Below, in pieces: positions 1,540 through 63,038 of a stretch of 64,000 nucleotides of DNA; within the stretch, counting starts at the first letter, position 1, and each line of letters starts with the position of its first letter. Made by a program: the position numbers and the translations under genes. The notes beneath the pieces are model-generated. The model saw only the letters and a list, made by a program, of their open reading frames with translations, was not told the origin of the DNA and did not search any database. The stretch comes from Companilactobacillus farciminis KCTC 3681 = DSM 20184 (GTDB lineage Bacteria; Bacillota; Bacilli; Lactobacillales; Lactobacillaceae), in contig NZ_CP017702.1 of NCBI RefSeq assembly GCF_002706745.1, forward strand, positions 1,674,001 to 1,738,000, read 5' to 3'.

Positions 1540-3006
<1,467 letters not shown>

Positions 3007-3011
3007 CTAAA

Positions 3012-3929
3012 CTATTCAAGTGCAGCAGCACCACCGATAATTTCGGTGATCTCTGTTGTGATTTGAGCCTGACGAGCACGGTTATAATGTAGTGACAAAC
3101 TTGAAATAAGATCATCAGCATTATCACTGGCACTCTTCATAGCTGTTACAGAAGCGGCATGCTCTGCTGTTTTTGCATCCATCATTGCTCCTAAAACTAA
3201 ACACTCAATATATTGAGGCACAATTGCAGATAGAACTGCTTTAGGGTTTGGTTCTGTGATGTATTCAGTCGCAACTTGTTGTTCTTCTGGTGTAACGTCA
3301 TCAGGATCAGCCAAAGGCAAAAGTTTTTGATTAGTAAATTCAGAAACTAATGAGTTCACGTGATGATTATGACAAATATCAATTTCATCGAACAATTCTG
3401 CTTGATACATTTGTAGAATCGTCTTCATGATTGGAGTGATATCTTTAACTGTTGGAATATCAGGTAAACCACGATATTCATACGATACGTCATATCCACG
3501 TGCTTTGAAGAATTCTGTTCCAGTAGCACCTAAGGAAATGATAGTAAACTTGCTTTGATCACCATGATATTTTGTTTCAAACAACTCCATCATAGCTTTC
3601 AAAATATTACTATTGTATCCACCAACAAGACCACGGTCACTAGTAATAACAACGTAGGCGGTCTTTTTGACTTCACGAACTTTTAAAAGACTGTTTAGAC
3701 TCAATGGATCATCGGAATCATCAGCGACTGACAATTCTTTGAAAACATCAGCTGCTTTCAAATGTCTAACAATATCTTCAACCTTTTTTTCATACAATTG
3801 ATAAGCAATAGATTTCTTTTCAATACGAGAGAGTTTAGCACCAGATACCATTTGCATGGCCTTTGTGATTTGACCGGTTTTCTTAGTAGAAGAAATTCTT
3901 CTTTTAATATCCATAAGGGACTCAGCCAT
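3012..3929 (-). CDS. atpG: F1Fo ATP synthase subunit gamma
   Basis: Central rotor shaft of F1, 305 residues. The N-terminal helix has the family pattern (MDIKRRISSTKKTGQITKAM), the middle has VITSDRGLVGGYNSN, and the C-terminal helix ends ASVTAMKSASDNADDLI...YNRARQAQITTEITEIIGGAAAL. It is somewhat longer than the roughly 285-residue bacterial norm because of a linker around 65-80 (VADDSDDPLSLNSLL) and an acidic stretch near 208-214. AGGAGG precedes the ATG. Eighteen to twenty bases separate it from its neighbours in the operon. Confidence 0.97.
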   Translation of the reverse strand: MAESLMDIKRRISSTKKTGQITKAMQMVSGAKLSRIEKKSIAYQLYEKKVEDIVRHLKAADVFKELSVADDSDDPLSLNSLLKVREVKKTAYVVITSDRGLVGGYNSNILKAMMELFETKYHGDQSKFTIISLGATGTEFFKARGYDVSYEYRGLPDIPTVKDITPIMKTILQMYQAELFDEIDICHNHHVNSLVSEFTNQKLLPLADPDDVTPEEQQVATEYITEPNPKAVLSAIVPQYIECLVLGAMMDAKTAEHAASVTAMKSASDNADDLISSLSLHYNRARQAQITTEITEIIGGAAALE

Positions 3930-3946
3930 AATTTAAACCTCCTGTA

Positions 3947-5506
<1,560 letters not shown>

Positions 5507-20529: not shown

Positions 20530-20718
20530 ATTTCAAAAAGCTATTTCCTTTAATAAGGTTCTTTCTTAAGTTAATTACAAAGCTGTCTCCACCGACTAGA
20601 TAACGTTTCTTATCGTTTATTTCATATAATTCAAAGTCAAAAAAAGCCTCTATTTGGAGAATACACTCCCAATAGAGGTTTTTGATTTGTTCGGTATAAA
20701 AAATAAAACCACTATCAA
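20530..20718. other. Intergenic stretch before structured RNA copy A
   Basis: No gene is seen in this AT-rich stretch. It begins with AAAAAGCTATTTC (20535-20547), the exact inverse of GAAATAGCTTTTT at 20907-20919 beyond RNA copy A, and it contains the terminator at 20641-20688. TATAAAAAATAAAAC (20695-20709) precedes copy A; a similar TATAAAAATATGAAAC precedes copy B at the same distance. Confidence 0.5.
20641..20688 (+). terminator. Bidirectional terminator downstream of the nitroreductase gene
   Basis: A stem of CCTCTATT-GGAG pairing with CTCC-AATAGAGG around the loop AATACA, flanked by AAAAAAAG and TTTTTG, so it can act on either strand. Confidence 0.8.
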
Positions 20719-20880
20719 GTCCGAAATAGCGAAGAAAATTGGCTCAAATGTGAAATTTCTCTTGGCAATTTATTGCCTAGTGAAAGGTCGAGCTTGAAGA
20801 CTTTGCCCGGTTTTGGTTTTAGCAAAGGCTCCAAGTCGTGCCCACATTGTTCCAGCCAAATTTTCTTCGCTATGGAGGAC
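20719..20880 (+). ncRNA. Structured repeat RNA, copy A (unnamed family)
   Basis: This 162-base element folds into four helices. P1 is ATAGCGAAGAAAATTGGCT (20726-20744) with 20854-20873. P2 is AATGTG (20747-20752) with CACATT (20843-20848). P3 is the hairpin GGCAAT-TT-ATTGCC (20764-20777). P4 is CTTG / CAAG plus CTTTGC / GCAAAG (20793-20835). Copy B (60740-60901, minus strand) matches it at 156 of 162 positions; one of the six differences is part of a compensatory G-C to A-U change in P1 (20731 with 20868). Copy C (61042-61197) keeps all helices with different sequence. The 61-codon reading frame on the opposite strand (20715-20900) has no homologous codon pattern and is explained by the repeat. 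The direction is assigned by analogy with C and by the T run at 20915-20921. The function is unknown. Confidence 0.72.
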
Positions 20881-21025
20881 GTAATACTTCCACTCATCAA
20901 GGTTAAGAAATAGCTTTTTTTAAATTATTTACAAAAAAATTACACAACTTTACATTAATTGAACAGAAAATATACACTCTTTCTATATTATCTAATCATA
21001 GAAATAAATAGTGGGTGTTTATTAT

Positions 21026-60683: not shown

Positions 60684-60739
60684 TAAAAAAAAACAGAAAA
60701 ATTAGGTTCCTTCTTAACTTCGGTTAGTTGTAATATTCC

Positions 60740-60901
60740 GTCCTCCATAGCAAAGAAAATTTGGCTGGAACAATGTGGGCACGACTTGGAGCCTTTGCTA
60801 AGCCCAGAACCGGGCAAAGTCTTCAAGCTCGACCTTTCACTAGGCAATAAATTGCCAAGAGAAATTTCACATTTGAGCCAATTTTCTTTGCTATTCCGGA
60901 C
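60740..60901 (-). ncRNA. Structured repeat RNA, copy B (unnamed family)
   Basis: The minus strand carries a 162-base element matching copy A (20719-20880) at 156 positions. The helices are the same. In P1 the pair equivalent to 20731:20868 is A-U instead of G-C, a compensatory change. Three of the six differences fall in the loop after CCCGGTT. Beyond the 3' end the minus strand has TTTTTCTGTTTTTTTTT (about 60683-60700), a possible termination tract. TATAAAAATATGAAAC lies about 20 bases before the 5' end, like a similar sequence in front of copy A. Confidence 0.72.
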
Positions 60902-60941
60902 TAGAGAGTTGTTTCATATTTTTATACAGCCAAACAAATAA

Positions 60942-61004
60942 GCATCTATTCAGATAATGGTAGCCATTAATTGACTATATTTGAATAGATGCCATTTTTA
61001 ATTT
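60942..61004 (+). other. Long hairpin between RNA copies B and C
   Basis: GCATCTATTCA (60942-60952) pairs with TGAATAGATGC (60982-60992), enclosing a second hairpin, TAATGG-TAG-CCATTA (60955-60969); ATTTTTAATTTT follows. It looks like a terminator but no plus-strand gene leads into it. Confidence 0.55.
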
Positions 61005-61041
61005 TGAGTTATTTGAAATAAATAATAAAAGACGTTTTCCA

Positions 61042-61197
61042 GTCGGGAGTGGTAGCTTTGTGGATGCTCAGTACTGAAATTTTGCTTAGCGATTTATCGC
61101 TTAGCAAAAGGTCAATCTTGGAGATGATTCCCGGTTCTGGAATTAGCTTCAAGTTGCGCCCAGTACGTTCCAGCGTCCACAAAGCTTCACTTACGAC
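61042..61197 (+). ncRNA. Structured repeat RNA, copy C, diverged (unnamed family)
   Basis: This 156-base element has the same architecture as copies A and B but different helix sequences. P1 is GCTTTGTGGATGCT (61055-61068) with AGCGTCCACAAAGC (61172-61185). P2 is GTACTG (61071-61076) with CAGTAC (61161-61166). P3 is AGCGAT-TT-ATCGCT (61088-61101). P4 is CTTG-AG-TGATT with AATTA-CT-CAAG (61117-61153). Single-stranded segments TGAAATTT, AAAGGTC, CCCGGTTCTGG and GTTCCAG are kept at the same places as in A and B. Outer pairs GTCG / CGAC and AGTG / CACT extend P1. The terminator at 61225 follows. Confidence 0.72.
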
Positions 61198-61224
61198 GAC
61201 ATCCAGCGGTAACCTATCTTAAAA

Positions 61225-61262
61225 AAAAACTCAGAAAAATTAATTTCTGAGTTCTTTTCTTC
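61225..61262 (-). terminator. Bidirectional terminator between RNA copy C and asnS
   Basis: AACTCAGAAA pairs with TTTCTGAGTT. The minus strand continues in a long T run (for asnS) and the plus strand in CTTTTCTTC (possibly for RNA copy C). Confidence 0.85.
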
Positions 61263-62699: not shown

Positions 62700-62945
62700 A
62701 AAAAAAATCCTCCATCCCTAATAAAAGGGACGAAAGATCTTTTCCGCGGTACCACCCAAGTTTTTTGTAAAAAACACCTCAAAGTACATAAATATACTCT
62801 CCAATTGTAACGCATTGGGTCACGTCCGTACCTACTCTACATGTGTATTTCAGCCAGAAATAACGAAGATGTTTTTCCTATATACCGACACGTTAAGTTC
62901 TCACTTGCCTTAACTCCCTGTGGATAAAGTATACAGTACTCCTTC
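62700..62945 (-). promoter_or_regulatory. T-box riboswitch of asnS
   Basis: On the minus strand the T-box sequence GGGTGGTACCGCGG (62743-62757 region) is followed by the terminator stem TCGTCCCT-TTTATT-AGGGATGG with GGATTTTTTT. A structured stem I region extends upstream to about 62945, within which GAGAACTTAAC holds an AAC triplet that could be the specifier. Uncharged tRNA-Asn should bind and favour the antiterminator, raising asnS expression. A promoter-like TTTACA / TACATT pair with 18-base spacing lies further upstream (about 62975-63010). Confidence 0.92.
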
Positions 62946-63038
62946 TTCTAATATTATTCATATTGATTTTCTTAAATGTAGCATATTTTCATACCAAATG
63001 TAAAGTACAATAGAGAAGTATTTATAAGGGAGGATTTT

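What the first reader, a model, noticed from the sequence alone, without database searches (positions are those of the whole stretch)
60740..61197. A repeated structured RNA with covarying helices and no family name I can give
Copies B (minus) and C (plus) here and copy A (20719-20880, plus) share one architecture. An outer stem P1 of 14 to 19 pairs encloses P2, a small hairpin P3 with a TT loop, and an interrupted helix P4. Between A and C nearly every paired base differs, yet pairing is kept. P2 is AATGTG:CACATT in A and GTACTG:CAGTAC in C. P3 is GGCAAT:ATTGCC in A and AGCGAT:ATCGCT in C. P4 is CTTTGC:GCAAAG in A and TGATT:AATTA in C. P1 is wholly different. The unpaired AAAGGTC, CCCGGTTYTGG, GTTCCAG and TGAAATTT are unchanged. 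Conserved loops with freely drifting stems are what selection on a folded RNA produces; a DNA palindrome or transposon end would not do so. Three copies in 64 kb and no linked protein gene suggest a trans-acting or selfish RNA.
Basis: partly seen in the sequence, partly recalled or inferred. Interest (0 to 1): 0.88.

Follow-up and report, generated by a model that had tools for sequence, protein, structure and literature searches.

The report
Jumping DNA with a conserved fold
Copies A, B and C are the folded body of short jumping DNA units that end like a known class of transposon; the same intricate fold, kept while its sequence drifts, recurs in many lactic acid bacteria, and what it does is not yet known but can be tested.

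Summary
The window genome (taken to be a Companilactobacillus) has 97 model hits, 92 longer than 150 bp; 34 of 36 genomes of the genus and 95 of 301 sampled from the family have hits, and in order and phylum samples every genome with a hit is in that family. Covariation is overwhelming (54 of 56 pairs change on both sides; score 0.730 against 0.184 shuffled, about 0.1 slid). No Rfam family reaches its threshold. G-T pairs exceed A-C mismatches, so one defined strand probably folds. The copies here lie in units with terminal inverted repeats (17 of 23 genome-wide repeat sites flank an element) and 7-11 bp direct repeats in 4 of the 5 best-preserved units. The same ends flank intact ~609-aa ISL3-family transposases in two same-genus genomes, both in hairpin loops. 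Best reading: a non-autonomous ISL3-type transposon with a head-to-head pair of folded elements as its body. Against it: no such transposase in this genome, 10 of 11 ISL3-less genomes carry the fold, and elements elsewhere seldom have the repeat. RNA or single-stranded DNA, and the role of the fold, remain unshown.

The parts
60705..61231 (.). B/C mobile unit (527 bp): inverted repeat - element B (minus) - spacer with hairpin - element C (plus) - inverted repeat
60694..60704 (+). left copy of an 11-bp direct repeat CAGAAAAATTA (probable target duplication)
61232..61242 (+). right copy of CAGAAAAATTA, lying in the terminator-like hairpin 61228-61253 beside asnS
60705..60726 (+). left terminal inverted repeat GGTTCCTTCTTAACTTCGGTTA
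61210..61231 (-). right terminal inverted repeat (3 mismatches to the pattern)
60736..60902 (-). element B, model R1 full length, 165.7 bits
60942..60992 (.). spacer hairpin, arms GCATCTATTCA and TGAATAGATGC, T-rich tail; the terminator scan does not call it (its loop is longer than the scan allows)
61041..61201 (+). element C, model R1 full length, 159.1 bits
61067..61173 (+). conserved three-way-junction core of C (model R3, 102.5 bits)
20557..20906 (.). mobile unit holding copy A (right boundary approximate); the orthologous site in G026 is a terminator-type hairpin without it
20557..20578 (+). left inverted repeat of the A unit (GGTTCTTTCTTAAGTTAATTAC)
20577..20598 (-). remnant of a C-type partner, its 5' end only (read by eye)
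20647..20678 (.). spacer hairpin of the A unit (CCTCTATT/AATAGAGG); not called by the terminator scan
20718..20884 (+). element A, model R1 full length, 166.3 bits

Best explanation
The window holds two copies of a non-autonomous (MITE-like) DNA transposon whose body is one or two copies, head to head, of a conserved folded element: outer stem P1, an asymmetric loop with GTTCC, then a three-way junction of P2, P3 and P4. Shown: family, fold, pairing, terminal repeats, insertion polymorphism, direct repeats at the best-preserved units. Inferred: an ISL3-family transposase of the ~609-aa clade acts in trans on GGTTCTTTCTTAA..GGTTA ends and inserts the unit, often into terminator hairpins; the spacer hairpin may restore termination (a guess). 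The fold is kept because it works as a folded single strand, more likely RNA than DNA, in the element's own propagation, for example by binding or recruiting the transposase; that last step is also a guess.
For: 97 hits in the genome, 92 longer than 150 bp. 24 of 24 neighbouring pairs (within 1.5 kb) are divergent. Spread: 34 of 36 genomes of the genus, 95 of 301 genomes and 14 of 40 genera in the family sample, 25 of 395 in the order sample, all of that family, 1 of 398 in the phylum sample, the own genome. Covariation. Empty sites: of 9 distinct places whose junctions I printed from the G026 comparison, 6 are empty there; 3 of these 6 fall in the loop of a strong terminator-type hairpin (copy A, L009, L035) and 3 do not. 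17 of 23 sites of the repeat lie 5-11 bp outside the 3' end of an element; the reversed control pattern had 2 sites. Of 5 distinct units with both repeats at 15 or more of 19 fixed bases, 4 have exact direct repeats of 7-11 bp. The same repeat ends intact ISL3 genes in G012 (1996 bp, 8-bp duplication GTTTTGCC) and G023 (1971 bp, 7-bp CATCTGA); joined flanks put G012, G023 and a broken copy in G030 in hairpin loops, as for the window and L032, but not for L039, so 5 of 6. In G006 an end of such an element abuts the P3-loop half of a folded element. G-T over A-C: 72 to 13 (A2), 36 to 10 (A3), 25 to 12 (A4, the unfitted one, P 0.024).
Against: No ~609-aa clade member was found in the window genome: 6 ISL3 hits, 418-480 aa. 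ISL3 genes do not track the fold: 11 of 36 genomes of the genus have no ISL3 hit and 10 of those 11 carry the fold, while G002 has an ISL3 gene and no fold. The repeat reaches 14 of 19 fixed bases beside only 2 of 24 elements tested in the genus (best copy per genome, own copies not tested, 5 of 29 loci left out) and 1 of 21 in other genera (1 of 22 loci left out), control 0.2%: the wider family may move otherwise. G-T pairs are only 2.5-3.0% of cells, which I judge low for an RNA (yardstick recalled). Promoter-like sites are at chance and the spacer hairpins are not called as terminators. In G026 the gene orientation around 45 sites (25 tandem, 13 convergent, 7 divergent) is close to that of 429 gaps (232, 96, 101) (69 of 77 hits used, 3 sites at edges dropped, genes are script-called frames). 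The autonomous copies do not carry the fold inside their ends.
Confidence: 0.65

Rival explanations
1. The fold acts as single-stranded or cruciform DNA: a hairpin substrate or landing pad for a transposase that prefers hairpin loops, never as RNA.
For: Target sites of the helper clade and of several units are hairpins (3 of 6, 5 of 6); one insertion end abuts the P3-loop half of an element; G-T pairs are scarce; promoter scans at chance.
Against: A double-strand cruciform treats G-T and A-C alike, yet G-T exceeds A-C in three alignments, weakly in the unfitted one; the conserved unpaired bases are more elaborate than a landing pad needs (inference).
Confidence: 0.28
2. The stems are kept by templated (quasi-palindrome) correction during replication; the fold itself has no function.
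For: Among 30 young copies both arms often change together without intermediates, for example A-T in 24 and C-G in 6 with none between.
Against: GTTCCA and other unpaired bases are invariant in 24 cores from several genera, although arm correction does not protect loops.
Confidence: 0.12
3. The element is host-domesticated: a 3'-end RNA module that terminates or insulates transcripts.
For: Units sit in terminator-type loops in 3 of 6 empty sites, and the two window units carry their own spacer hairpin.
Against: Sites are polymorphic; the B/C unit is inverted in G026 and only C is left in G005; gene orientation near background; hairpins not called by the terminator scan.
Confidence: 0.1

Closest known systems
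MITEs (miniature inverted-repeat transposable elements), here with ISL3-type ends
   Same: Short, no frame of 80 aa or more inside, terminal inverted repeats, direct repeats of 7-11 bp at the best-preserved units, ends shared with autonomous ISL3 elements of two same-genus genomes
   Different: The body is a covarying multi-helix fold with invariant loops, often in head-to-head pairs; the fold (not the repeat) occurs in 14 of 40 genera of the family sampled
REPIN / RAYT elements (PMC3116915 and others, search listing only; PMC3733652, listing and passages)
   Same: Structured units in inverted orientation, high copy number, intergenic
   Different: Far larger fold (about 160 nt against REPs of 20-40 bp); ISL3-type ends with direct repeats. 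HUH transposases and a GTAG or CGTC tag were not searched for
Orphan structured RNA classes of Rfam
   Same: Covariation-defined fold with conserved loops
   Different: No Rfam 15 family matches at threshold, and the copies here lie in a DNA transposon

Membership tests
MITE | short, without transposase gene | tested here: met
   B/C unit 527 bp, A unit about 350 bp, no frame of 80 aa or more inside
MITE | terminal inverted repeats | tested here: met
   17 of 23 repeat sites flank elements; met for this subgroup, rare beside elements elsewhere, 2 of 24 and 1 of 21
MITE | target-site duplication and empty sites | tested here: met
   6 empty sites in G026; 4 of 5 best-preserved units with 7-11 bp exact repeats
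ISL3-mobilised | ends shared with an autonomous ISL3 element | tested here: met
   G012 and G023
ISL3-mobilised | 8-bp duplication (recalled for ISL3) | tested here: inconclusive
   8 in G012, 7 in G023, L032, L035 and L039 by exact match, 11 in the window
ISL3-mobilised | helper of the same clade in the same genome | tested here: not met
   6 ISL3 hits, 418-480 aa
ISL3-mobilised | helper family occurs where the fold occurs | tested here: not met
   10 of 11 genomes of the genus without an ISL3 hit carry the fold
Known Rfam RNA family | score at or above a gathering threshold | tested here: not met
   only T-box leaders and tRNAs outside the elements; (E up to 5): eight matches, all far below their cut-offs
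REPIN/RAYT | HUH (RAYT) transposase associated, GTAG or CGTC tag | not tested
   no such search was run
Transcribed non-coding RNA | a transcript | not testable with these tools
   no expression data held; promoter-like sites at chance

The most novel reading that the evidence does not exclude
A family-wide class of transposon-borne structured RNAs: two divergently oriented RNAs form the body of a transposon without a transposase gene, act in RNA form on a transposase or on its targeting to terminator hairpins, and have persisted across Lactobacillaceae by changing vehicles while keeping the RNA core.
Probability: 0.3. Interest if true: 0.88.

Novelty: new variant of a known kind. Interest (0 to 1): 0.72.

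Why it matters
A fold this strongly conserved inside a short transposon without genes is unusual, since such units are generally thought to need only their ends (recalled). It gives a testable case of a structured RNA or single-strand fold serving a parasite of a transposon, and it points to an ISL3 clade that lands in hairpin loops, which can be assayed directly. It also bears on annotation: many Companilactobacillus genomes hold tens of copies of something that has no Rfam family.

Tried and rejected
Rfam: nothing at gathering thresholds on the elements; at E up to 5 on 60700-61260, eight matches far below their cut-offs, such as MIR5272 at 22.6 against 64.5 bits. Plasmid and phage collections with the B/C stretch: no match, with the tool's warning that near records may be left out. 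Viral contigs: one pattern hit, not confirmed by the core model. The ISL3 elements of the own genome as helper: their ends (GGCTCTTTGTCAAATCG.., or GGCTCTAAGTC..) only resemble the repeat. Genes beside ten fetched regions, eight of them from genomes with 1-3 hits: by eye no shared neighbour, except that G153 and G251 are the same locus; no family search of those genes was made. Preference for gene 3' ends: not clear. ISL3 gene as an integral middle of the pair: suggested by G009 but given up, because in G012 the pair lies outside the element's ends. Spacer hairpins as terminators: not called by the scan. Literature: ten searches listed no paper that I recognised as describing this element; passages of PMC3733652, PMC2267715 and PMC9208149 were read, the rest only as listings.

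Full report
What was checked. The three copies are in the sequence and fold as described. A model of 22 own-genome copies finds 97 places in the 2.55-Mb genome, 92 of them longer than 150 bp, three in the window. Same-genus handles match named Companilactobacillus contigs by length (G005 C. formosensis, G007 C. futsaii, G022 C. musae), so the window is taken to be a Companilactobacillus; that is inference.

The fold. Covariation is far above shuffled and slid controls on three alignments. A1 and A4 are plain MAFFT alignments, but their structures were derived from them; A2 was fitted to the model. On A1 one of five measures, further pair types, did not exceed shuffles (218 of 500). The outer stem P1 varies almost freely between lineages; the core keeps GTTCCA, AATT and AAG, fully or nearly so. 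G-T exceeds A-C 72 to 13, 36 to 10 and 25 to 12, weakest on the unfitted A4, which points to one defined strand. Among 30 young copies the arms often change together, so part of the double change may come from templated correction.

Spread. 34 of 36 genomes of the genus have it, 95 of 301 in the family sample with 14 of 40 genera. In the order sample 25 of 395 match, all of the same family; in the phylum sample only the own genome of 398. The large samples used stricter filters, and the number of candidates scored per genome was limited (80, 9), so copy counts are lower bounds.

Architecture. Own-genome hits within 1.5 kb of each other form 24 pairs, all divergent, with gaps from an overlap of 89 to 219 bp. 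Pairs in other genera are mostly divergent too, with direct tandem copies in G112 and G165. The B/C and A spacers hold a hairpin, and most of 15 other own-genome spacers aligned show a similar one by eye; the 61-63 bp spacers have little room for it.

Mobility. In 800 kb of G026, 48 locus-to-region alignments came back, many repeating a place. I printed 11 junctions at 9 distinct places: 6 are empty in G026, 2 differ by loss of the core only (L033, L007) and 1 has the fuller copy in G026 (L004). Of the 6 empty sites 3 fall in a strong terminator-type loop, including that of copy A, and 3 do not. At the B/C site G026 has the unit inverted and G005 only C. The repeat has 23 sites in the genome at up to 3 mismatches, against 2 for the reversed control; 17 of 23 lie 5-11 bp outside an element's 3' end. 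Of 5 distinct units with both repeats well kept, 4 have exact direct repeats of 7-11 bp; the fifth, L010, has 4 by that cut and GAAGAAAA by eye.

Helper. An ISL3 search of the genus led to a ~609-aa transposase clade with the same ends in G012 and G023; these two and a broken copy in G030 sit in hairpin loops. Against a tight link: the own genome has ISL3 genes of other kinds only, 10 of 11 ISL3-less genomes of the genus carry the fold, and the repeat is seldom found beside elements elsewhere, 2 of 24 and 1 of 21.

What stays open. Nothing here shows transcription, and nothing shows what the fold does. I hold an RNA role somewhat more likely than a DNA role because of the strand asymmetry and the elaborate invariant loops.

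Noticed in passing
L133, L134, L135, L142, L145, left of asnS: A different palindromic repeat (..GGGAGCTGACCG.. or ..GGCCAATTTCTTCCGC..) sits at the asnS 3' end in several same-genus genomes; seen by eye.
   Followed up: no
L435:3772-4454: Tandem array of three cores at 168-bp spacing plus one divergent core in G112.
   Followed up: partly
L236 and L125: A 1754-bp stretch 97.3% identical between two genera carries a short form of the element that lacks most of P4.
   Followed up: partly
L105:491-1500: Degenerate transposase resembling the ~609-aa clade between elements in G009.
   Followed up: partly
L123:1679-2051: The spacer of a divergent pair contains a short open frame of about 50 aa (read by eye).
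   Followed up: no
own genome 198356, 1990598, 2135822, 2392710: Hits of 59-71 bp that span the model ends, apparently remnants that keep P1 without the core.
   Followed up: no
L474, around 2620-4760: The G023 transposon appears nested inside a second pair of the same terminal repeats (by eye).
   Followed up: no
window 62723-62961 (-): T-box leader upstream of asnS, ordinary.
   Followed up: no
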